Assembly (NCBI GenBank): GCA_020832655.1
Contig: JAFIEF010000002.1
Location: forward strand, 1-64,000
DNA: 64,000 nucleotides
From: Paracoccaceae bacterium
GTDB taxonomy: Bacteria; Pseudomonadota; Alphaproteobacteria; Rhodobacterales; Rhodobacteraceae
Direction of reading: 5' to 3'
In this document: in pieces, positions 1,294 to 28,883 of the stretch
Position numbering within the stretch: position 1 is the stretch's first letter
Layout of the letters: every line of letters begins with the position of its first letter
Notes under the pieces: model-generated
Database searches by the model: none
Told to the model about the DNA's origin: nothing
What the model saw: the letters and a program-made list of their open reading frames with translations, nothing else
Position numbers and translations under genes: made by a program

Positions 1294-3804
<2,511 letters not shown>

Positions 3805-3839
3805 GGGTTTTCCTGTCATCGGATTCGCTGATCTGAAAG

Positions 3840-3870
3840 AAGATGAGGCTTCCAGCCATGGGAAGGTCAA
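3840..3870 (-). promoter_or_regulatory. CueR-type copA promoter and operator
   Basis: Read on the minus strand, TTGACC (-35, 3870-3865) is followed after 19 bases by CATCTT (-10, 3845-3840). The spacer contains the dyad CTTCC-N7-GGAAG (3849-3865). A 19-bp spacer with a CCTTCC/GGAAGG-like dyad is the hallmark of MerR/CueR-activated promoters. It ends about 35 bases before the chosen copA start. Confidence 0.8.
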
Positions 3871-4055
3871 TACCTCCATGAAAGATTCTACTTTAGTCAC
3901 CTCAACCTGCCGCAGCACGCAGACCTGTGTCGCAAGCACGCGATGCAGGAAGGTCAACCAGGTTTATAAGTCTAGGTGATCCATCCCGGATGATCACATT
4001 TCCCCTCGTCCCCCGTTTGACGCCACGACACATGGTTTGGGGTGAAGGGCGCCCG

Positions 4056-9759: not shown

Positions 9760-12700
9760 TTGAATAACATCACCGGTAGCACCCTGTCAGAGACCATCAA
9801 ACAGCCCGACCCGTTCCTGACGACCTGTGTGTCTGTTGACATCGAGGTCGATCCCAGGACAGCGCGCGTGTTCGACCTGGCCGCCGTCCACTGCACGAAG
9901 GCTGAGCCAATTCGCGGCCAGAAGGGCGGCGTGGCATCCGCGCTGGATAGGCTTGAGGCCGCTCTGGGGGATGCACGGCATCTGATCGGCCACAACATTC
10001 TGCGCCATGACCTGCCGCATCTGGCCGCCCTGCGCCCCCGTCTGGCGCAGCTTGCGCAGGCACCCATTGACACGCTCTGGCTTAATCCGCTCGCTTTTCC
10101 GCGCAACCCCTATCATCACTTGGTCAAGCATTATCATGATGGGCGGTTGCTGTCGGGCCATGTCAACGACCCCGAAGCAGATGCACGGCTTGTCTTTGAT
10201 GTGCTGAGCAACCAGCTGGGCGCCTTTCGTGCCCTGAATGCGCAATCACCCGATGCCGTTGCCGCCTATCACTTCCTCACATCGCGTGGGGAAAATGACA
10301 CCGGCTTCGGCGCGCTGTTTCAGTATGTGCGCGGGGCTGATGTGCCACCTGCTAATCAGGTGCGCCAAGCGATCAGGCGGCTGCTTGACGGGCAGACCTG
10401 TGCCTCGGCGCTCGAAGCAGTTCTGGATGAAATAGCGTCCACCACCATGGGTTGGCCACTCGCCTATGCGCTGTCATGGATATCTGTTGCAGGCGGGGAT
10501 TCAGTCATGCCGCCTTGGGTGCGGATGCAGTTTCCGGGTGCCGCGCGCATGGTGAAACGCCTGCGTGACACGGGCTGCGATGCGCCGGACTGCGCCTGGT
10601 GCCGCGAGAAGGGCGACCCGGTCAAAGCGTTGTCGCGGTGGTTCGGCTTTGACGCCTTTCGCCCTGTGCCGGTGGATGCTGATGGGCGCCCCTTGCAGGA
10701 ACGCATCGTCGACGAGGGGATGCGCGGCAAGAGTATACTTGGCATCCTGCCCACCGGGACGGGGAAATCCGTCTGCTACCAGATCCCGGCGCTGGCCAAG
10801 TTTGATCGGACCGGTGCGCTGAGCGTCGTCATCTCGCCGCTTGTCGCCCTGATGGCCGACCAGGTTGCAGGGATGGAGCGCGCGGGCATTTCTTCGGCCG
10901 TCACGGTGAACGGGATGCTCTCATTGCCCGAGAGGCAGGACGCACTGGAGAAGGTGCGCATGGGCGAAGCGGCTATGCTGCTTATCTCGCCCGAGCAGTT
11001 GCGCAGCGTCGGTGTGCGATCCGTGCTCGCGCAGCGCGAGATTGGCCTCTGGGTGCTGGATGAGGCGCATTGTGTCTCGAAATGGGGGCATGATTTCAGG
11101 CCCGATTATCGCTATATCGCGCGGTTCATCCGCGAAACCGCAGGCGATGCGGACCCCGCTCCCGTGATCTGTCTGACCGCGACTGCGAAGCCAGAGGTCG
11201 TGCGCGATATCCGCGACCATTTCCAGCAGCGGCTCGGGACGGAGCTGTTGTTGCTAGATGGCGGTGCATCGCGGACAAATCTGAGTTTCGAGGTGCGTGA
11301 AACAGGGAAGCGCACCAAGCTGGCCGACATTCTTGAGGTCATCGAACAGCGCCTGCCGCCCGAAGGTGTGTCCGGTGCCGTGGTCTATTGCGCAACACGC
11401 AAGGCGACCGAAGACGTGGCGCAGTTCCTGCAGTCGCAGGGGCTTTCGGCGGAACGCTACCATGCCGGGCTGACGCCCGACGAGAAGAAGACCATTCAGG
11501 AAAGGTTTCGGATCGGTGAGCTGCGGGTGATCGCGGCGACCAATGCTTTCGGGATGGGGATAGACAAGCCGGATATCCGGCTGGTCGTGCATGGCGACAT
11601 TCCCGGCTCGCTCGAGAACTACCTGCAGGAGGCAGGCCGCGCTGGTCGCGACCGGGACCATGCGAATTGCGTGCTTCTGTTTGCGGCCGATGATGTTGAA
11701 CGACAGTTCCAGCTTTCGGCGCGCTCGCGCCTCGCCCGGCATGAGATCGGTGCCATCCTGAAGGCCGTGCGGCGCATGGATGCCCGGACGCGCAGCACAG
11801 GAACTGTGGTTGCGACCGCAGGTGAAATCGTGCGCAACGAGCAGGATCGCGAGTTTCAGCGTGAAAGCGCCACGGATGATACGCGGGTCAAGACAGCGCT
11901 GTCCTGGCTGGAAGAGGCGAAACTGCTTACCCGAGAGGAAAACCGCGTGCAGGTTTTTCCATCCTCGCTGCGCGTGCGCAGCCTTGAAGATGCGAAAGCC
12001 TTGCTGGACAAGGCGCAGATCACGGGTACGCGGCGCGTCCAACTGATGGATATCGTCCGCCATCTGATCAATGCGCCGCCGGATGAGGGTATCTCTACGG
12101 ATGAGTTGACCGGGATCAGCGGGCTGACCGGAGGGCAATTGACCAAGGCGCTGGCCGATCTCGAAGCGCTGGGGATTGCGCGCAACGACACCGCTGTGAC
12201 GGTCTTTGTGCATCATCATGGTCCGGACAGTTCGCTCAAGCGGTTGGGACAGGCGATGCGGCTGGAAACCGACCTTATCGCCCTGATGCGCGAAGAGGCA
12301 CCTGACGCGGATGAACAAATCAGCACTCCCTTGAACCTGCAACTGGCCTCTCAGAAGCTGCGCGACGGCGGGCACAGCCATGTGCGCCCCGATGTGGTCG
12401 AGAAGCTCTTGCGCGGCATGGCGCGCGATGGTCGTGACCTTGATGGTGGCAAGGGAAATCTGCGCCTGCGCAAGGCTTCGCGTCACACGCTGCTCATAGC
12501 GCTGCAACGCTCATGGTGGGTGATCGAACAGTCAGCCGCCCTGCGCCAGCAGGCGGGCGAAGCATTGGTCGAGCATCTGCTGGGCCGCCTGGCGAAAGGC
12601 CAGCGCGGCAAGGATCTTCAGGTCGAGACGACGCTGGGCGATATGCTGGCCAGCCTGTCCGGCGATGCGTTCCTGCGCGCACAGGTCAAGGAAATGACAC

Positions 12701-14889
12701 GGCTGATGGATCGCGCGCTGATGTGGCTGCACGAGCAGGATGTGGTGACGCTTGGCAAGGGGCTGACCGTGTTCCGGCCTGCGATGACAGTGCAGCTTGC
12801 CCCCGGAAAGGGGCAATTCCTGGTCAAGGATTTCGCGCCCCTGCAACAGCATTACGACGAACAGACCGTGCAGACCCATGTCATGGCCACCTATGCCGAG
12901 GCGGGGCTCGCCTCGATGCCCGATGCGATGCGCCTGTCAGAGGATTACTTCACTCTCGATCAAGAGGCCTTCATGGGCCGCTGGATGAAAGGCAGAACCA
13001 CAGAGGTTAAGCGCCAGACAACCGGCAAGTCATGGACCGCAGTTGTCGAGGCATTGGGCAACCCGGTTCAACAAAAGATCGTGGCGGATGATCGAGATGC
13101 GACCAATGTGCTGGTTCTGGCCGGGCCGGGGTCGGGCAAGACGCGGGTGCTGGTGCATCGCATCGCCTATCTGATCCGGGTCCGGCGCGAGGATCCGCGC
13201 AGCATTCTTGTGCTCAGCTATAACCGTCACGCCGCAGTCGAAATCAGGGCGCGGCTCCGGCATCTTGTGGGGGATGAGGCTTACGGCGTGACAGTATCTA
13301 CCTGCCACGCGCTGGCCATGCGGCTTGTGGGGGCGAGTTTCGCCGGATCGCGGGCCGAAAGCCGCGACTTCGACGGCGTTGTCATGGAGGCCGTGCGCCA
13401 GTTGACCGGCGAAGGGCTGAGCAAGACCGAGGCCGAAGCCCAGCGCGAGACGCTGATTCAGGGCTATCGGTGGATCCTTGTGGATGAGTATCAGGATGTT
13501 GGGCCCCAGGAGTATGCGCTGATAGCAGCGGTAGCCGGGCGGACGATTGAGGATGAAGACCTTCGCCTGAGCCTTTTTGCTGTCGGGGATGACGATCAGA
13601 ACATCTATGCCTTTTCCGGTGCCTCGATCCGCTACATTCGTCAGTTTGAACAGGATTACCGGGCGAAGCCGGAATACCTGGTCGAGAACTACCGGTCGAC
13701 CCGGCATATCATCGAGGCGTCGAATATCGTGATCTCCGGAGCCGCAGACCGGATGAAGCGCGGCCACGACATCATGATCGATCGCAAGCGCCGTCGTGAC
13801 CCGACAGGTGGCGTGATGGCACAACGCGATCCGGTGGGGCAGGGGCGTGTTCAACTGCTGGATTGTCCGCCGGGTGACCGAGCACAAGCCATCGCAGCGA
13901 TCGGCGAGTTGCAGCGTCTGGCCGCGCTGGAAGAGGGTTGGAACTGGTCGCGCACAGCGATCATCGCGCGCAACTGGCGGCAGCTTGCCCCGGCGCGCGC
14001 CTATGCCGAGGCGCAGGGCATCCCGGTCGAAATGGCCAATGAGAGCCTGCCGAGCCTGTGGCGCATGCGCGAAATGCGCCTGTTGATCGAGGCGATCAGT
14101 CGCGACCGGACGCGCCTGCTGAACGTGCCTGACCTGATAGAGATCGCGAACACATTGCCGCGCAACCGTTGGTCTGATCTTGTTGCCGAGGGCGTCGCCG
14201 CCCTGGCGCAGGAGATCGGGGCGGGCGCAGCATCGGTTCCCGACCTGATCGAATGGTTCGGTGAATGGGCGCGCGACGCACGAGGCGAGCAGCGCGGGCT
14301 GCTTTTGATGACCGCGCACCGCGCCAAGGGGCTGGAATTCGATGATGTGGTGATCCTGAACGGCGGATGGGACCATCCGTCGCAGAACGAGGATGCGGAC
14401 GCGCCCCGGCGGCTGTTCTATGTCGCGATGACACGCGCACGCCGCAGCCTAGCAGTGATGACGCAAGGGGCACATGCCTTTGTGCCTGCCGCCGGTAACA
14501 ATATCCTGAGGCGACAGGTTACGCTGCCCGATCTGCACGATCTGCCACCAGAGCGGCATTACCTGATGCCCGAGCTTGGCCAGGTCTTCATTGATTGGGC
14601 CGGGCGCTTGCCAGCGGGCGACCGCAGTCTTGGGGCTATCGAACAAGCTCGGGTCGGCGCCCCCGTCACCGTGGCGCAAAAACACGGACGCTGGTTTGTC
14701 ATGGACAGGCAGGGGCGGCGGTTGTCTGCGATGCGGGGTGATTGGGCTGTGCCTGCGGGGCGACGGATCGTATCTGCCCAGATCGGGGCAATCGTGACAC
14801 GTCATGCGCATGAAAGTGGCGAAGAGCATCGCTCACGGCTGAGCCGAGAGAGATGGGAAGTTGTTCTGCCCGAGATAGTGCTGGAGTGA
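9760..14889 (+). CDS. Giant fusion helicase: DEDD exonuclease-like domain, RecQ (SF2) helicase and UvrD/PcrA-like (SF1) helicase
   Basis: A 1709-residue protein with three enzymatic modules. Residues about 20-155 resemble a DEDD 3'-5' exonuclease: VSVDIEVDP, then GHNILRHDLPHL, then HVNDPEADARLVFDVL. Three cysteines near 273-281 (CDAPDCAWC) could bind metal. The RecQ module has Walker A PTGTGKS (about 330), DEAHCVSKWGHDF (about 434), LTATAKPEV, VVYCATRKATEDVAQFL, and GMGIDKPDIRLVVH with QEAGRAGRD. The C-terminal SF1 module has Walker A AGPGSGKTR (about 1121), DEYQDVGPQ (about 1240), GDDDQNIYAFSGAS, ENYRSTRHI, TAHRAKGLEFDDVV and FYVAMTRARRSL. Both motors look intact. The start is TTG at 9760, just after an in-frame TAG; no ATG is available before residue 240 and no clear ribosome-binding site is seen. 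Repair, recombination or antiphage roles are all possible; none is shown by the sequence. Confidence 0.88.
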   Translation: MNNITGSTLSETIKQPDPFLTTCVSVDIEVDPRTARVFDLAAVHCTKAEPIRGQKGGVASALDRLEAALGDARHLIGHNILRHDLPHLAALRPRLAQLAQAPIDTLWLNPLAFPRNPYHHLVKHYHDGRLLSGHVNDPEADARLVFDVLSNQLGAFRALNAQSPDAVAAYHFLTSRGENDTGFGALFQYVRGADVPPANQVRQAIRRLLDGQTCASALEAVLDEIASTTMGWPLAYALSWISVAGGDSVMPPWVRMQFPGAARMVKRLRDTGCDAPDCAWCREKGDPVKALSRWFGFDAFRPVPVDADGRPLQERIVDEGMRGKSILGILPTGTGKSVCYQIPALAKFDRTGALSVVISPLVALMADQVAGMERAGISSAVTVNGMLSLPERQDALEKVRMGEAAMLLISPEQLRSVGVRSVLAQREIGLWVLDEAHCVSKWGHDFRPDYRYIARFIRETAGDADPAPVICLTATAKPEVVRDIRDHFQQRLGTELLLLDGGASRTNLSFEVRETGKRTKLADILEVIEQRLPPEGVSGAVVYCATRKATEDVAQFLQSQGLSAERYHAGLTPDEKKTIQERFRIGELRVIAATNAFGMGIDKPDIRLVVHGDIPGSLENYLQEAGRAGRDRDHANCVLLFAADDVERQFQLSARSRLARHEIGAILKAVRRMDARTRSTGTVVATAGEIVRNEQDREFQRESATDDTRVKTALSWLEEAKLLTREENRVQVFPSSLRVRSLEDAKALLDKAQITGTRRVQLMDIVRHLINAPPDEGISTDELTGISGLTGGQLTKALADLEALGIARNDTAVTVFVHHHGPDSSLKRLGQAMRLETDLIALMREEAPDADEQISTPLNLQLASQKLRDGGHSHVRPDVVEKLLRGMARDGRDLDGGKGNLRLRKASRHTLLIALQRSWWVIEQSAALRQQAGEALVEHLLGRLAKGQRGKDLQVETTLGDMLASLSGDAFLRAQVKEMTRLMDRALMWLHEQDVVTLGKGLTVFRPAMTVQLAPGKGQFLVKDFAPLQQHYDEQTVQTHVMATYAEAGLASMPDAMRLSEDYFTLDQEAFMGRWMKGRTTEVKRQTTGKSWTAVVEALGNPVQQKIVADDRDATNVLVLAGPGSGKTRVLVHRIAYLIRVRREDPRSILVLSYNRHAAVEIRARLRHLVGDEAYGVTVSTCHALAMRLVGASFAGSRAESRDFDGVVMEAVRQLTGEGLSKTEAEAQRETLIQGYRWILVDEYQDVGPQEYALIAAVAGRTIEDEDLRLSLFAVGDDDQNIYAFSGASIRYIRQFEQDYRAKPEYLVENYRSTRHIIEASNIVISGAADRMKRGHDIMIDRKRRRDPTGGVMAQRDPVGQGRVQLLDCPPGDRAQAIAAIGELQRLAALEEGWNWSRTAIIARNWRQLAPARAYAEAQGIPVEMANESLPSLWRMREMRLLIEAISRDRTRLLNVPDLIEIANTLPRNRWSDLVAEGVAALAQEIGAGAASVPDLIEWFGEWARDARGEQRGLLLMTAHRAKGLEFDDVVILNGGWDHPSQNEDADAPRRLFYVAMTRARRSLAVMTQGAHAFVPAAGNNILRRQVTLPDLHDLPPERHYLMPELGQVFIDWAGRLPAGDRSLGAIEQARVGAPVTVAQKHGRWFVMDRQGRRLSAMRGDWAVPAGRRIVSAQIGAIVTRHAHESGEEHRSRLSRERWEVVLPEIVLE

Positions 14890-20963: not shown

Positions 20964-22202
20964 TCAAGCGTCAAGCCGAGTGCGATCATGAAGCATCAGC
21001 ACGACCAACGCCACACCAAGCGCTGCGCCGAACAATAGCAGCGAGCCGGTCAGATCCTCCATCAGCCCCGGTTTCAGCGCCAGTGCCCCGGCCAGCGCCA
21101 CCATGACCATGCCACCGACCAGTTTGAGCGCGCGGCCGTGGCGTTCACCCATGCGCCCCAGACTCATCCCGGTCACCGCAACGGCGAATATCACCAGCTC
21201 GACGCCCAGATAGATCAGCACGTAAAGCGCCAGAAACCCCCAGAAACCCGCCCCGGCGATCACGCCCCGTTCAGCAAGTATCCCTGACCAGATCACCGGA
21301 AACCCTGCCGTGCAGGGCAGTTCCACCAGTGCGATCCCAGCAGCCATGCCAACCGTTGCGGTAATCAGCGCGGGCGTGCCAAGATCTTGCTGACGCAATT
21401 GGCGGATGCGGGCATATATGCCGGGTTTCTGCCCTTCGGGAATGGAAAAACTGACCCCGCGTCCGTGCCAGAAATAGTCCTTGATGCTGACCAACCCGAA
21501 TCCCAGCGCAAAGAGCGCCACCGCCCAGCGGACCCAAGGCAGCGCGAAGGCCCAGGCCATGACACTGAACAGCCCGGCAATGAAGGCGCCATAGATCAGC
21601 GCCGTGGTCAGCAGAAAGCTGACCCCCACCACCGCCACGCGCTTGCGCGACCCAGAGGCGATGACCATGCCCAGTAGCAGCGTAAGCACCCAAAGCGAGC
21701 AGGGGTTGAAGCCGTCAACAAAGGCGATCAGCACCGTTACCCCTGCCAGCGAGGCGGCAGCTGCATCGACCTCGCCCCAGATTGGCAGGCGCAGGGCGTT
21801 GTCCGGGGCGGGTTCCACGCCTGCCAGCGTGGCTGCGATTGCCGCCTCGATCTGGGCGCGCTGGGCGGGTGTGTCGCCCACCCAGACGTCGCTGCCCAGC
21901 ATCAGCGTGGGCACGAATTCCGCGCGGATGCCGCGTTGCGCCGCCATTTCTTCGAACCGCGCATGGTTGTCCTCGGATCGCGACAATTCCATTGCATCCA
22001 CGGCCAAGCCCGGAAAACGGGCCTCCAGCGCGTCAATCCACGGTTTCTGGCGGATGCATACCGGGCAGGTCAGGCTCCAGAACACATGCAGCACGGGGCC
22101 ATTCGCGTCTGGAGTTCCGTCCGCAGCCGAGGCTGCGCTGGCGGATAGCAGCGCCAAAGCCAGCCACAGTGCGGCCAGCGCCCGTGTTGCGATGCGCGTC
22201 AT
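20964..22202 (-). CDS. Periplasmic thioredoxin-like domain fused to a CcdA/DsbD-like membrane domain
   Basis: A 412-residue two-domain protein. A signal peptide (ALAALWLALALLSASAASA) leads to a thioredoxin-fold domain (about 35-125) with the redox motif CPVC in VFWSLTCPVCIRQKPW and a cis-Pro segment FVPTLML. From about 150 on there are about seven or eight helices with one Cys in GFNPCSLW and another in ELPCTAGFP, the paired membrane cysteines by which CcdA/DsbD carry electrons across the membrane. It probably moves reducing power from cytoplasmic thiols to the periplasmic domain. It is the last gene of the acs-E1-E2-ACP operon, 5 bases after the ACP gene. Its link to that metabolism is unexplained. 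Confidence 0.75.
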   Translation of the reverse strand: MTRIATRALAALWLALALLSASAASAADGTPDANGPVLHVFWSLTCPVCIRQKPWIDALEARFPGLAVDAMELSRSEDNHARFEEMAAQRGIRAEFVPTLMLGSDVWVGDTPAQRAQIEAAIAATLAGVEPAPDNALRLPIWGEVDAAAASLAGVTVLIAFVDGFNPCSLWVLTLLLGMVIASGSRKRVAVVGVSFLLTTALIYGAFIAGLFSVMAWAFALPWVRWAVALFALGFGLVSIKDYFWHGRGVSFSIPEGQKPGIYARIRQLRQQDLGTPALITATVGMAAGIALVELPCTAGFPVIWSGILAERGVIAGAGFWGFLALYVLIYLGVELVIFAVAVTGMSLGRMGERHGRALKLVGGMVMVALAGALALKPGLMEDLTGSLLLFGAALGVALVVLMLHDRTRLDA

Positions 22203-22207
22203 GCCTG

Positions 22208-22456
22208 TCAGCCCGCCGGCGCCTTGCCCAGATAGCGCACGGCCTGCGCGGTGGTGGCCAGTTCGGGATAATCCGCTTCCGGGATCGGCAGGCCGAAACG
22301 CTTGTGCAGCGCGCTGACCAGATTCAGGAAATCCATCGAATCAAGGCCCAGATCGTCCTGAAGGTGTTCGTCGTCATCCAGCAGGTCGGGGTCGATGTCC
22401 GGGGCGACCGAAGTCAGATCCTCGATAAAGGCGGCGCGGATATCTTTTGGGGTCAT
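22208..22456 (-). CDS. Acyl carrier protein
   Basis: An 82-residue acidic helical protein with the phosphopantetheine site DDLGLDSMDFLNLV (Ser40). It would need activation by a holo-ACP synthase. It is not the fatty-acid AcpP: it differs in length and context, being overlapped by the E2 gene (ATGA, four bases) and lying in an operon with an acyl-CoA synthetase and 2-oxoacid dehydrogenase subunits. It likely carries a dedicated acyl group for that pathway. Confidence 0.88.
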   Translation of the reverse strand: MTPKDIRAAFIEDLTSVAPDIDPDLLDDDEHLQDDLGLDSMDFLNLVSALHKRFGLPIPEADYPELATTAQAVRYLGKAPAG

Positions 22457-23726
22457 AATGTCTCTGGCTCCTGCAGCAATTGGTCTATTTCGGCAAGCAA
22501 GATTGCCCCGCGGCGGCCATCGCTGACGCGGTGGTCAGCCGCCAGCGTGGCGGTTACACAGACCCGCGCGGCAACCGCGCCGTCATGGGCCAGGGCTTCA
22601 GCGCGCGGCGCGCCAAAACCCACCAGCGCCACCTGTGGCGGGTAGATGACGCCATAAAGTGCATCTACCCCGGTCTCGCCCAGGCTGGAAATGGTGATCG
22701 TGCCCTGCGTGATCTCGCTGTTTCTAAGTCGCCCGGTGCGGGTGCGGGCGACAAGGTCACGCATCGCCGCCATGATCTCATCCAGTGCCTTGCCCTGCGC
22801 ATCCATGATCGCCGGTGCAATCAACCCGCCGCCGCGCATGGCCACCGCCATGCCGCAATGGATATCTTCGGCGGGCGTGTAGTGCGCGCCCTCGAAGCGG
22901 CCGTTCAGCTCGGGCACCTTGGCCAATGCGCGCACTGTGGCGCGGATCAGAAGCGCGCCCATCAGCAGGCGTTTGTCGGGGCTGCGCTCGGCATTTGTCG
23001 CGCCCAGCCAGTCCTGCGCGGCTTGCAGGTCGATCCGGTGCGACAGGTAGTAATGCGGGATCTCGCGCTTGGACCGGCTCATGGCGGTGGCGATGGCGCG
23101 GCGCATTTCGGCCATGTCCAGCCCCGGCTTGCCCCTCGCTGCGGGCTTGGCGGCTGGCTTGGCGGCGGGTGTTTCCAGGGTCTCTTTTGTGGCGGGAGCA
23201 GTCTTGAGGTAATTCTCCACATCGGCCAGCAACACCGCTCCGCCGGGGCCGGAGCCTGTGACTTGGGTCAGATCAAGCCCGGCTTCTGCCGCGCGGGCCT
23301 TGGCGGCGGGCGAGGCCAGCACCCCGGTTGCATCCGCCCCGCCCGGTGCTTTGGCACCGGGCAGCGCCCGCGAGGCGCGCCGGGGTGGGTGGGTGGGATG
23401 CGCCGAGCGGGCGCTTTCTTCCGGCTCCGCCGGGGCGGTCGTCCTGGGCGATTCCGGCACTGCCCTGGGTGCAGGCGCGTCGTCCTGCACCTCGCCGGGT
23501 TTGCGCATCCGCGCCAATGGTGCGCCCACGGGCAGGGTCTGGCCCGGCTCGGCGATCAGTTCCGCCACTTCGCCCGCCTCGAATATCTCGATCTCGATGG
23601 CACCTTTCTGGGTTTCGACCACCGCCACGATATCGCCGCGCGCGACGCTGTCACCGGGCTTGACCAGCCATTCGACCAGCGTGCCTTCTTCCATATCCGC
23701 GCCCAGCGAGGGCATCTTGAACGTGC

Positions 23727-23730
<4 letters not shown>
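22453..23730 (-). CDS. 2-oxoacid dehydrogenase E2, lipoyl-dependent acyltransferase
   Basis: A 425-residue E2. The lipoyl domain (1-80) carries the lipoylation lysine in [10 protein letters not shown] (Lys42). A proline- and alanine-rich linker follows, then a peripheral subunit-binding domain ([19 protein letters not shown] with [13 protein letters not shown]), a second linker and the catalytic domain with DHRVSDG near the end (His and Asp of the active site are kept). It takes an acyl group from E1 and passes it to CoA or possibly to the neighbouring ACP. The substrate (pyruvate, acetoin or a branched 2-oxoacid) cannot be read from sequence. It overlaps both neighbours by four bases. Confidence 0.9.
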
Positions 23731-25714
<1,984 letters not shown>

Positions 25715-25718
<4 letters not shown>

Positions 25719-27436
25719 TTTGCGTCCTCCTCCAGCGTGGACAGATCGCCCTCGGGCAGGCCCAGTTCGCGCGCGCGCAACAGGCGGCGCATGATCTTGC
25801 CCGAGCGTGTGCGCGGCAGGCTGTCGCGGAAGACGATCTCGCGCGGGGCCACGGCGGGGCCGAGTTTCTTGCGGGCATGGCCGCGCAATTCGCGTTCCAG
25901 TTCCTCGCCCGGCTCGAAGCCTGCCTTGAGGGTGACGAAAGCCTTGACCACCTCGCCCGCGGTTTCGTCCGGCACGCCGATCACCGCGGCCTCGGCCACC
26001 GCTTCATGTTCGATCAGCGCGCTTTCCACTTCGAAGGGGCCGATCAGATGGCCTGCGGATTTGATCAGGTCATCGGCGCGGCCCACGAACCAGAAATACC
26101 CATCCGTGTCGCGCATCGCCAGATCGCCGGTCAGGTACCAGCCGCCCTTGAACACCTTGGCATAGCGTTCCGGCTGGCCCAGATAGGCGCGCATCATCGA
26201 TGGCCAGCCGGGGCGCAGCGCCAGTTCGCCGATTTCGCCATCGGGCAGTTCGGTGACGTGCGCGCCCTCGACCTGCACGATCCCGGCCTCGATCCCCGGC
26301 AGGGGCTTGCCCATCGCGCCGGGCTTGATGTCCATCGCGGCGGTGTTGGCAATCATGATGCCGCCGGTTTCCGACTGCCACCAATTGTCATGGAAGGGCA
26401 GGCCGAAAACCTGCTGGCCCCATAAAACACATTCGGAATTTAGCGGCTCGCCCACCGAGGCCAGAAACCGCAGCGCGCTGAAATCATGCCCCTTTGCGGC
26501 CTCGGTTCCCGCGCGCATCATCATGCGTATCGCGGTGGGGGCCGTGTACCAGACCTGCACAGCTTCGCGTTCCAGAATGGAATACCAGCGCTGAAGGTCG
26601 AATTCGGCCTCGTCCACCACCAGTGTCACGCGGTTGCACAAGGGCGCGATGATGCCATAGCTCATCCCTGTGACCCAGCCGGGATCGGCGGTGCACCAGT
26701 AGATGTCACCGGGGCGCAGATCCAGCGCCAGCCGCCCGGTTTCCGAATGCGCCACCACCGCCTGATGCACATGCACCACCCCTTTGGGCAATCCGGTGGT
26801 GCCAGAGGTGAAGTGCAAAAGCGCCATATCCTCCGGGTCGGTGGCTTCGGTTTCGAAGCGGTCAGACGCCTTGGTCATCGCTGGCCCCAGCGCCACGCAG
26901 CCTTCGGGCGCGTCATCACCGATGATCAGCACCAGCTTCAGCCCCGGCATCTGGTCGCGCCAGGGGGCCACCTTGCGCTTGTAATGCTGCGCGGTCGTCA
27001 CCAGCACCGAGGCCGCGCCGATTTCCATGCGCGCCCGCACCGGTTCCGGGCCGAAGGCCGCGAAAAGCGGGCTGACCACCACCCCCGCCTTGAGCGCGCC
27101 CAGCGTGGCGGCGTAAAGTTCCGGCACCCGACCCGAGAGCAGGAACAGCCGTTCGCCGGGGTGAATGCCATGCGCGCGCAGGGCATTGGCAAAGCGCGCG
27201 GCGTCGGCAGCCAGATCGGCATAGCTCTGAACCAGCCGCGCGCCATCCTTGCCCAGCCAGATCAGCGCGGGTTGATCGCCATGCCCTGCGGCCACATGGC
27301 GGTCGAGCGCCTCATGCGCGATGTTCAGCCCACCCCCTTGCAGCCCCTGAAGGCGGGTGCGGGCAGCCTGCCAGCCAGTGGACAGGCCCGCCGGGTCGGG
27401 CAGGGATGCCTTCTTGATGATGTCTGTCTTCGCCAC
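25715..27436 (-). CDS. Acyl-CoA synthetase, acetate-CoA ligase-like (AMP-forming)
   Basis: A 573-residue member of the ANL superfamily. Motifs in order: [18 protein letters not shown] (adenylate/phosphate binding), [44 protein letters not shown] and the C-terminal [11 protein letters not shown] with the catalytic, acetylatable Lys. The start is probably GTG 27436, with GGGAGGGG just upstream, rather than ATG 27460. It activates a carboxylic acid to the CoA (or, given the context, ACP) thioester. It overlaps the E1 gene by four bases and heads the operon. The tryptophan in the NWWQSE motif is typical of enzymes for short acids, but acid specificity is inferred. Confidence 0.88.
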
Positions 27437-27842
27437 GGTCCCCTCCCTTAGCGAAATCAAATCTCACGCGGTTGATCGAACTCTGCTTGGCCAGAATTGT
27501 ACCGCCCCAAGCGTGTTGTAGCCTGATGCGGAATTCCTGACCTGTCTTTGATGCAGGTCAGTATGTGGCAGATGCGCAGATCTGCAAACACCTCGGTATC
27601 TGCGGCATATGAAGGCGTCGGCGCGTAGGACGAAAACGTGGCATCCGCCCGCCGTTATCGATTGCACGACGCTAGAACGCCCGGACGCTTTCGCTTTTCT
27701 TGGGGCACAGTCCAGTCTGTATCATATCTGATGAGGTGGCGGCGCAAGAAAACAACAGCCAAGGTCAGAGGCGCGCGGACTGATCGTTTCACCGACCGAA
27801 GTCGCTGCCCTTTGACCACCAGTAACCCCAAGGCGCTTGAAG
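27437..27842. other. Upstream region of the acyl-CoA synthetase operon
   Basis: About 400 bases with no supported gene. It should hold the promoter of the minus-strand operon and the end of the lacI-type gene. One 10-bp palindrome, GCAGATCTGC (27576-27585), is visible about 140 bases upstream of the acs start. No convincing -35/-10 pair was found. Confidence 0.4.
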
Positions 27843-28883
27843 TCAGGATTGCGGTGCTTCAGCAGGTGGGAAAACCGGGGCGTCGATCTGCTGCATATGC
27901 GATGCGCCCGCCTGACTGATTTCGTTCAATGCCGCGCGGGCAAGAAATGCACCGGCCTTGCGGACATCTTCATGTTCGACCTTGATGTCGCGCGGGACAA
28001 GATCGAGGATTGGAAAGGTTTCCTTGGCGACGATGTCGATATCCCGACCGATGGTCAGGCCCGCATCCTCCAGTGCGGCGATGACGGCCAGCGCGGCATT
28101 GGGCGAGGCCACAATCACCCCATCGGGTCGGGGCTGCGCTGCCAGCGCGTCATGAACGGCCTTTCGCACATCCGCGCGCGACGAATCACTGCTCAGCCCC
28201 GCAGGTGCAAGCAATGCCAGACCGTGTTCGCTGATCGCTGCGTCAGCGCCTGCGCGCATCTCGCGACCATAGGTTTCGGTATCGGGTGGGGCAATCAGCA
28301 AGAGATTGCGCCGCCCGCGCCCGACCAGATAGGTGACGGCGCGACGCCCGAACCCCTTATTGTCATAATCGAACCAGGCATGATCGCCATGCCAGTCCGA
28401 GCGGCCATGCGTGGCGAAGGGAAAGCCCTTGTCGCGCAGATAGGCAATGCGGGGGTCTTGTGGTTGGATGCGATTGAAGATGACTGCATCGGCCGAGCGG
28501 GTTTCCACCACATAGCGCACCGGGTCGATCAGCGACTGGCCCGGCATTTCGGGCACCACGACCAGATGATAGCGCGTGCCGCTCAACGCGCCTGCGATGG
28601 CCGCAACCAGCCGCGAGGTCATGTTCAGCGCGTCTTCATCCATCGGCAGAACAACCGCGATGACATTGGTGCGGCCGGTGCGCAGCCGCACGCCCGCCCG
28701 GTCGGGCACATAGCCCACCTCCTGGGCGATCCTGCGCACAAGGTTCTTGGACTCGGCGCTGATATCCGGCGCATCGCCCAGCGCGCGCGAAACGGTTGTC
28801 ACCGCCAGCCCGCTGAGTTCCGCGATGGTCCGCAATGTCGGGCGCTTCCGGGGTGTCTGTGTCGAAGAAGGGGTTCGGACCAT
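27843..28883 (-). CDS. LacI family transcriptional regulator
   Basis: A 346-residue regulator. The N-terminal HTH (LRTIAELSGLAVTTVSRALGD) and hinge region (residues about 15-70) are followed by a sugar-binding periplasmic-protein-like core with NVIAVVLP, DAVIFNR, GHDAL-like and GVIVASPNAAL segments. It is divergent from a GH1 beta-glucosidase, and two operators lie between them, so it most likely represses the glucosidase until a beta-glucoside or its product is present. The ligand cannot be named. Confidence 0.88.
   Translation of the reverse strand: MVRTPSSTQTPRKRPTLRTIAELSGLAVTTVSRALGDAPDISAESKNLVRRIAQEVGYVPDRAGVRLRTGRTNVIAVVLPMDEDALNMTSRLVAAIAGALSGTRYHLVVVPEMPGQSLIDPVRYVVETRSADAVIFNRIQPQDPRIAYLRDKGFPFATHGRSDWHGDHAWFDYDNKGFGRRAVTYLVGRGRRNLLLIAPPDTETYGREMRAGADAAISEHGLALLAPAGLSSDSSRADVRKAVHDALAAQPRPDGVIVASPNAALAVIAALEDAGLTIGRDIDIVAKETFPILDLVPRDIKVEHEDVRKAGAFLARAALNEISQAGASHMQQIDAPVFPPAEAPQS

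What the first reader, a model, noticed from the sequence alone, without database searches (positions are those of the whole stretch)
20964..27436. Operon joining acyl-CoA ligase, fused E1, E2, acyl carrier protein and a Trx-CcdA protein
Five genes overlap by four bases or lie within 5 bases. An ACP between a 2-oxoacid dehydrogenase E2 and a periplasmic thiol-redox protein is not a standard pathway. The E3 dihydrolipoamide dehydrogenase is absent. One reading is that acyl groups made by E1/E2 or by the ligase are loaded on the ACP for a dedicated product. A bolder one is that dihydrolipoyl electrons leave through the CcdA-like protein.
Basis: partly seen in the sequence, partly recalled or inferred. 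Interest (0 to 1): 0.75.

Follow-up and report, generated by a model that had tools for sequence, protein, structure and literature searches.

The report
Low-oxygen pyruvate dehydrogenase with own ACP
The five genes are real; four of them (an acetate-activating enzyme, the first two parts of a pyruvate dehydrogenase and a private acyl carrier protein) form a unit that bacteria of several phyla keep together and carry on plasmids, probably used when oxygen runs low, while the fifth, a thiol-redox membrane protein, is a local add-on.

Summary
Observation confirmed: on the minus strand, ligase, fused E1, E2 and ACP overlap by 4 bp each, and Trx-CcdA follows after 5 bp. E3 lies elsewhere in the genome. 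Ligase-E1-E2-ACP is a conserved module: ACP follows E2 in 101 of 101 testable loci, ligase precedes E1 in 100 of 101 (E1-found subset 58 of 58 and 60 of 61, five phyla). Its E2s form one clade. Trx-CcdA is whole in only 5 of 113 loci, so the electron-exit idea fails. FNR-type boxes lie upstream of the ligase in 17 of 26 dereplicated Pseudomonadota loci against 37 of 173 other genes there, one 111 bp upstream of the window's ligase. Neighbours include stress proteins and PEP synthase; plasmids carry it. The ACP lacks the acidic helix II of ordinary ACPs. Best reading: a mobile hypoxia module making acetyl units from pyruvate and acetate and handing them to its own ACP, with a borrowed E3. Acetyl-ACP is inferred; QncN/L/M and SclQ1-4 are precedents. 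Lone ACPs (4 of 38 profile hits) speak against a fixed pair. No paper on it was found.

The parts
25715..27436 (-). AMP-forming acetate--CoA ligase (AcsA type), first gene of the operon, GTG start at 27436
   Evidence: PRK04319 852.6 bits, cut-off 729; WWQ[TS]ETG motif in 103 of 104 cassette ligases scoring over 300 bits (that this Trp marks acetate specificity is recalled)
23727..25718 (-). fused pyruvate dehydrogenase E1 alpha+beta, 663 aa
   Evidence: TIGR03182 and PRK09212 above cut-off; 45% / 44% identical to the genome's own PDH E1 beta / alpha at C11:38144-40491
22453..23730 (-). E2: one lipoyl domain (ETQKG), E3-binding domain, catalytic domain (DHRVSDG)
   Evidence: Pfam PF00364, PF02817, PF00198; member of one E2 clade, SH-aLRT support 100
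22208..22456 (-). dedicated acyl carrier protein, 82 aa, phosphopantetheine site S40
   Evidence: PF00550; D39-S40 in 102 of 102 cassette ACPs, E60 in 99, D62 in 98, Y63 in 97
20964..22202 (-). thioredoxin-like (CPVC) plus CcdA-like membrane protein; accessory gene, not conserved with the module
27548..27561 (.). FNR-type box (one mismatch; reads CTGACCTGCATCAA towards the operon), 111 bp upstream of the ligase start
   Evidence: position shared with near relatives (L033, L034, L036); enrichment tested; not more than chance within this window alone

Best explanation
The operon carries a mobile, oxygen-responsive acetyl-generating module. E1 decarboxylates pyruvate and acetylates the lipoyl arm of E2. 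E2 passes the acetyl group to the phosphopantetheine of the co-encoded ACP, alone or besides CoA. The AMP-forming ligase activates acetate into the same acetyl pool, or runs backwards to recover ATP. The dihydrolipoyl arm is reoxidised by the housekeeping E3, which docks on the E2's E3-binding domain. The Trx-CcdA gene is an accessory gained in some Rhodobacteraceae and is not part of the cycle. Shown: the gene set, its conservation, the missing E3, the kept E3-binding domain, the clade, plasmid carriage, FNR-box enrichment and the kinds of neighbours. Inferred: pyruvate as substrate (from E1 family and adjacent PEP synthase), acetyl-ACP as product, FNR control, and the hypoxic role.
For: Order ligase-E1-E2-ACP: ligase in 100 of 101 and ACP in 101 of 101 testable loci; E1-found subset 60 of 61 and 58 of 58, the 58 from Pseudomonadota 52, Actinomycetota 3, Chloroflexota, Gemmatimonadota and Spirochaetota 1 each. 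4-bp overlaps in 83 of 101 E2/ACP junctions. ACP profile: 14 places at 83 bits or more in Pseudomonadota, all 14 beside E2 and E1, while 16 of 16 fetched lower-scoring loci are not. The ACP looks private: helix II net charge mean -0.25 against -4.95 in 20 ordinary ACPs (17 from its genus, 3 from its class). E2s: one clade on a long stem; Arg299 in 75 of 75 with a one-residue insertion beside it in 75 of 75, absent from the 6 other E2s aligned, which have E, D, K or P there; DHR kept (75 of 75). Acetate-type ligase motif in 103 of 104. PEP synthase on the same strand next to the cassette in L044, L096, L160, L203, L211. FNR boxes; Crp/Fnr, Usp, Hsp20, FtsH, CBS neighbours. Precedent for E1/E2/ACP: QncN/L/M and SclQ1-4 (PMC6335953, passages).
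Against: No assay shows acetyl-ACP. The CoA-binding side of E2 could not be mapped, so loss of CoA binding is not shown. A cassette-type ACP stands without a neighbouring E2 in 4 of 38 profile hits at 72 bits or more (L190, L194, L199, L206), and with only an E2 remnant in one (L195); in G798, G807 and G871 no cassette-level E2 was found at all, and G488 has its E2 on another contig. I saw no gene for using acetyl-ACP that recurs with the module. FNR boxes: 0 of 16 Actinomycetota loci have one, and DosR-like boxes are only weakly enriched there (6 of 16 against mean 1.74, maximum 5 of 200 draws); 11 of 29 Pseudomonadota representatives have none. 73 of 113 loci show none of the scored stress genes in the held flank (40 do; many flanks are cut by contig ends), and no background rate for these neighbours was computed.
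Confidence: 0.5

Rival explanations
1. A second, ordinary pyruvate dehydrogenase plus acetyl-CoA synthetase for low oxygen: E2 makes acetyl-CoA as usual, and the ACP has an accessory role (structural or regulatory, octanoyl donor for lipoylation, or another).
For: E1 passes pyruvate dehydrogenase models, the E2 catalytic DHR motif is intact, the ligase is of the acetate--CoA type; lone cassette-type ACPs exist.
Against: An ACP in 101 of 101 testable loci with a 4-bp overlap to E2 in 83 of 101 is hard to explain by an accessory role; no lipoylation gene is named among the annotated neighbours of nine plasmid loci (that annotation is incomplete, and such genes were not searched for by profile).
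Confidence: 0.3
2. The ligase, not E2, is the partner of the ACP: an acetyl-ACP ligase whose product is then used by an unknown acceptor.
For: The ligase is nearly as constant as the ACP (100 of 101).
Against: L044 keeps E1-E2-ACP without the ligase (PEP synthase stands in its place); the ACP gene overlaps E2, not the ligase; the ligase passes the CoA-ligase model by a wide margin.
Confidence: 0.12
3. One reading: dihydrolipoyl electrons leave through Trx-CcdA, replacing E3.
For: Trx-CcdA lies 5 bp behind the ACP here and 3-5 bp behind it in L033, L036, L044, L056; all four cysteines are invariant.
Against: Whole in 5 of 113 loci only; E3-binding domain in 24 of 26 E2s; two E3 genes above cut-off in the genome; the Trx domain follows a signal-like hydrophobic segment, so it should face away from the cytoplasmic E2 (inference).
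Confidence: 0.03
4. A biosynthetic starter module of the QncN/QncL/QncM kind that takes a C2 unit from a ketose phosphate to an ACP for a secondary metabolite.
For: Same part list, E1, E2 and ACP (PMC6335953, passages).
Against: No NRPS or PKS gene is named among the annotated neighbours read, apart from two AMP-binding proteins in L162; stress-type neighbours and an acetate ligase; five phyla with one conserved set.
Confidence: 0.05

Closest known systems
Pyruvate dehydrogenase complex (alpha2beta2 E1, E2, E3)
   Same: E1 and E2 domains, lipoyl lysine, E3-binding domain, catalytic DHR motif
   Different: E1 fused here, own ACP and acetate ligase, no E3 gene, separate E2 clade on a long stem, shorter E2 C-terminus (26-27 residues from DHR to the end in 81 of 96 cassette E2s, 29 in the genome's own PDH E2), FNR-type boxes
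QncN/QncL/QncM (quinocarcin) and SclQ1-4 (scleric acid)
   Same: E1 + E2 + ACP, where a C2 unit ends on the ACP (PMC6335953, passages only)
   Different: those are read as taking a ketose phosphate and feeding a peptide assembly line in Streptomyces; here an acetate ligase and PEP synthase neighbours.
DevR/DosR cluster of Mycobacterium smegmatis (msmeg_3926-3955) and FNR-controlled stress islands
   Same: PEP synthase, universal stress proteins, [NiFe] hydrogenase, response regulator (PMC11303327, passages; compare L163 and L196)
   Different: the passages read do not place an E1/E2/ACP module in that cluster
ScsC-like, DsbA-like and CcdA thiol-redox proteins (for Trx-CcdA)
   Same: Trx-like domain closest to copper/metal-resistance and DsbA-like chains (E 0.0015-0.0023), two membrane cysteines
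   Different: no Pfam family reached, membrane half not modelled with confidence

Membership tests
pyruvate dehydrogenase complex | E1 of the pyruvate dehydrogenase alpha/beta families | tested here: met
   TIGR03182 422 over 393.85; PRK09212 403 over 321
pyruvate dehydrogenase complex | E2 with lipoyl, E3-binding and catalytic domain | tested here: met
   window; lipoyl and catalytic in 26 of 26, E3-binding in 24 of 26 scanned
pyruvate dehydrogenase complex | E2 above the curated cut-off of a named E2 family | tested here: not met
   best 257.9 against 445
pyruvate dehydrogenase complex | own E3 gene in the operon | tested here: not met
   E3 at C34 and C86 of the genome
pyruvate dehydrogenase complex | pyruvate as substrate and CoA as acceptor | not testable with these tools
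   needs an assay
acetoin dehydrogenase operon | acetoin E2 model above cut-off | tested here: not met
   71.9 against 307
QncN/L/M-SclQ glycolyl-ACP system | E1, E2 and ACP encoded together | tested here: met
   window; ACP in 101 of 101 testable loci
QncN/L/M-SclQ glycolyl-ACP system | NRPS assembly line beside it | tested here: not met
   none recognised in the window's ORF list (by eye) nor named in nine annotated plasmid loci, save two AMP-binding proteins in L162
QncN/L/M-SclQ glycolyl-ACP system | sequence kinship with QncN/QncL/QncM | not tested
   their sequences were not found in what I had at hand
ordinary (fatty-acid) ACP | curated ACP model above cut-off and acidic helix II | tested here: not met
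   best model 41.8 against 71; helix II net charge -0.25 against -4.95 on average
FNR-regulated operon | conserved FNR-type box upstream | tested here: met
   17 of 26 against 37 of 173 in Pseudomonadota, 0 of 16 in Actinomycetota; consensus recalled, binding not shown
DsbD/ScsB/CcdA thiol transporter (Trx-CcdA) | Trx fold with CXXC and two membrane cysteines | tested here: inconclusive
   motif and Trx half yes; membrane fold not confident

The most novel reading that the evidence does not exclude
A CoA-sparing pyruvate dehydrogenase for hypoxia or dormancy: E2 is built to acetylate a protein carrier. Its core may be a free trimer, because the hydrophobic C-terminal tail is shortened, which would open the CoA side of the channel to the ACP. 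The AMP-forming ligase then turns acetyl-ACP into acetate and ATP, a fermentative route that avoids free CoA and Pta-AckA and has spread on plasmids and across five phyla.
Probability: 0.2. Interest if true: 0.88.

Novelty: new variant of a known kind. Interest (0 to 1): 0.68.

Why it matters
Pyruvate dehydrogenase is textbook metabolism and is thought to hand acetyl groups to CoA. A widespread, horizontally moving version that carries its own ACP and sits in low-oxygen and stress gene islands would mean that a protein-bound acetyl group is part of how many bacteria live through oxygen shortage. The module can be tested with a few purified proteins, and the private ACP gives a handle (its acyl group) for finding the product.

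Tried and rejected
Electron exit through Trx-CcdA: rejected because the gene is not conserved with the module. Acetoin operon: rejected on curated scores and gene set. ACP as an ordinary fatty-acid ACP: rejected. An apparent E2-ACP fusion in L195 and L221 was first read as a fusion; it proved to be a decayed E2 end running into the ACP frame, in L221 next to a transposase-like ORF. Mapping the CoA site of E2 through the literature led nowhere usable. Structure search of Trx-CcdA gave no match at E up to 0.001; most of the 50 rows shown are thioredoxins. First gene calling by longest ORF chose shadow ORFs and was replaced by a codon model. Searches for papers on the module listed none whose title or opening abstract describes it; some searches sought background.

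Limits: the E1 scan kept the best 80 of 191 relatives. Loci L188-L225 were mostly chosen because their ACP scored, so the E1-found subset is the fairer count for the ACP, and the ACP-found set is the one that shows lone ACPs. Gene calls and labels in unannotated loci are mine; six loci (L190, L194, L195, L199, L206, L221) had no training genes, got no calls there and are outside the 113. In one search one of the two E3 queries was a shadow ORF; one search repeats the search with both true E3 sequences and gives the same four genes. Neighbour names rest on one Pfam-scanned representative per cluster and on record annotation. The FNR control was random stretches of the same loci, mostly coding; the stricter control, upstream regions of other genes of the same loci, is.
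Full report
Observation. The five minus-strand genes are present at the stated coordinates with three 4-bp overlaps and one 5-bp gap. Domain and curated-family scores identify an AcsA-type acetate--CoA ligase, a fused pyruvate-type E1, an E2 with lipoyl, E3-binding and catalytic domains, and an ACP. The fifth gene carries a CPVC thioredoxin-like domain and two membrane cysteines in a CcdA-like arrangement (the CcdA likeness is recalled); the six aligned sequences keep all four cysteines, but Pfam does not name it, a profile search of solved structures matches essentially its Trx half, and the model is confident only there (fold search). The genome has a separate PDH (E1 at C11, 44-45% identity to this one) and two E3 genes above the curated cut-off.

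Conservation. A scan with E1 found 191 relatives, of which 80 (78 loci) were kept; eight are other E1 families and serve as outgroups (L074, L077, L078, L087, L090, L099, L101, L107). In the remaining 70, wherever the contig runs on far enough, the ACP follows E2 (58 of 58) and the ligase precedes E1 (60 of 61). Adding plasmid loci and genomes found through the ACP gives 101 of 101 and 100 of 101. The exception, L044, has a PEP synthase in the ligase's place, overlapping E1 by 4 bp. E1 is fused in 43 and split in 23 of the E1-found loci. An ACP profile (alignment A1) separates well from other ACPs in 398 Pseudomonadota genomes: 14 places (own genome included) at 83 bits or more, all beside E2 and E1; the next place, 59.9 bits, is a decayed copy, and the other places listed are at 54.5 or less (the list is capped). 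In Actinomycetota 19 of 396 and in Chloroflexota 4 of 201 genomes have it (each count includes the seed genome). Of the 38 places in these three scans, 33 have an E2 beside them (some cut by a contig end), one has only a remnant and 4 have none. This speaks against the idea that ACP and E2 are inseparable; G488 has its E2 on another contig, and G798, G807 and G871 have none at cassette level.

Mobility and age. In a tree of 81 E2s the 75 cassette members are one side of a branch with SH-aLRT support 100 and a stem of 1.5 changes per column; Actinomycetota, Chloroflexota, Gemmatimonadota, Spirochaetota and Pseudomonadota are interleaved, many inner branches being weak (quick method, several long branches). 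The module sits on plasmids of Leisingera, Burkholderia savannae (conjugative type), Sulfitobacter, Tropicibacter, Rhodococcus, Methylocystis and Cupriavidus by annotation, and of Streptomyces and Photobacterium by my own search. In the window's own genus 3 of 36 genomes have the ACP (many are fragmentary assemblies). All 19 plasmid ACP hits lie beside an E2, by annotation or by the coordinates of the E2 search.

Control and context. An FNR-type box (TTGAYNNNNRTCAA, consensus recalled) with at most one mismatch lies in the 300 bp upstream or first 60 bp of the ligase in 54 of 97 loci, the window included, against a mean of 4.05 and a maximum of 6 in 20 draws of random stretches. After dereplication to E1s below 80% identity it is 18 of 29 in Pseudomonadota (mean 1.59, maximum 6 of 200 draws) and exact in 9 of 29 (mean 0.51, maximum 3). 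Against upstream regions of other genes in the same loci it is 17 of 26 versus 37 of 173, p=1.2e-5, and exact 8 of 26 versus 17 of 173, p=0.007. The window's own site, 27548-27561, has one mismatch and on its own is no more than chance (4 such sites in 64 kb, 4.13 expected); what counts is its shared position with relatives. None of 16 Actinomycetota loci has a box; there a DosR-like motif (recalled, up to two mismatches) occurs in 6 of 16 against a mean of 1.74 and a maximum of 5, which is only suggestive; over all 97 loci it was 15 against 7.5, maximum 14. Of the eight outgroup loci one (L107) has a one-mismatch FNR-type site. Neighbour clusters within the held flanks include PEP synthase (11 of 113 loci), Hsp20 (11), two Usp clusters (11 and 8), P-type ATPase (10), PhaC (10), FtsH (7), CBS proteins (7) and Crp/Fnr (6); 40 of 113 have at least one of P-type ATPase, Hsp20, Usp, CBS, FtsH or PEP synthase. 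No background rate was computed. In Rhodococcus pDK1 (L163) the cassette lies with PEP synthase, a sugar kinase, a Rv2632c-like protein, Usp, a GAF sensor kinase and a LuxR-type regulator. The M. smegmatis cluster msmeg_3926-3955 has PEP synthase, five Usp, the Hyd3 hydrogenase and DevR (PMC11303327, passages read); a [NiFe] hydrogenase-type gene cluster lies near the cassette in L093, L196, L197, L201 and L209.

Mechanism. Pyruvate is the likely substrate: E1 falls in pyruvate families, and PEP synthase, which uses pyruvate, is a same-strand neighbour in five loci, two of Rhodobacteraceae-type, two from the Actinomycetota and one Photobacterium plasmid (L044, L211, L096, L203, L160). The ligase keeps WWQ[TS]ETG in 103 of 104, which by recalled work on acetyl-CoA synthetase points to acetate. 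The E2 keeps its DHR motif (75 of 75) and, in 24 of 26 scanned, the E3-binding domain, so a borrowed E3 is the simplest way to close the cycle. The ACP is not an ordinary one: its helix II has a mean net charge of -0.25 against -4.95 in 20 ordinary ACPs (17 of the genus, 3 of the class), with N45 (89 of 102), H51 (72) and R53 (79) where those have Glu (20 of 20), so it should not dock well on fatty-acid enzymes (inference from recalled work on ACP recognition). The natural partner, by gene overlap and constancy, is E2. E2 differs from six other E2s by Arg299 and a one-residue insertion beside it (75 of 75 against 0 of 6) and by a C-terminus that stops 26-27 residues from the DHR motif in 81 of 96, against 29 in the genome's own PDH E2, which ends in a hydrophobic tail. 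In E. coli E2, CoA enters from inside the core (PMC8421416, passages); a shortened tail could leave a free trimer open to an ACP. This last step is speculation. The precedent that a lipoyl-linked E1/E2 can serve an ACP is QncN/L/M and SclQ1-4 (PMC6335953, passages).

Verdict. The module is real, conserved and mobile, and tied to low-oxygen and stress islands (I hold this at about 0.85). That E2 acetylates the ACP is my best reading (0.5 for the whole statement). The Trx-CcdA gene is a local addition. I found no paper on the module in the library searched, which holds open-licence papers only.

Noticed in passing
window 9760-14889 (+): A 1709-aa ORF joins a DEAD-type helicase (residues about 310-631, looks RecQ-like) to a UvrD-type helicase (about 1101-1567).
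   Followed up: no
L190, L194, L199, L206: Cassette-type ACPs without a neighbouring E1 or E2; by eye those of L194 and L206 lie among CBS, Usp or P-type ATPase-like genes. Their partner is unknown.
   Followed up: partly
L221 8929-9444 and L195 8535-9167: Decayed copies: the end of an E2 runs into the ACP frame; L221 has a transposase-like ORF next to it. Described only.
   Followed up: partly
L044 2860-5283: PEP synthase takes the ligase's place and overlaps E1 by 4 bp; in L096 PEP synthase overlaps the ACP gene by 4 bp.
   Followed up: yes
L093, L196, L197, L201, L209: A gene cluster of the [NiFe] hydrogenase large-subunit type near the cassette, with NAD-binding and small-subunit-like genes in L196.
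   Followed up: partly
L126 205-5329: Sulfitobacter plasmid: a PhaC-cluster protein, FabI, enoyl-CoA hydratase/phosphate acetyltransferase and acetate kinase just upstream of the cassette.
   Followed up: no
window 27843-28883 (-): A LacI-family regulator lies upstream of the ligase on the same strand, beside a divergent family 1 glycosidase; whether it acts on the operon is open.
   Followed up: no
window 1294-3957 (-): Heavy-metal P-type ATPase with HMA domains.
   Followed up: no
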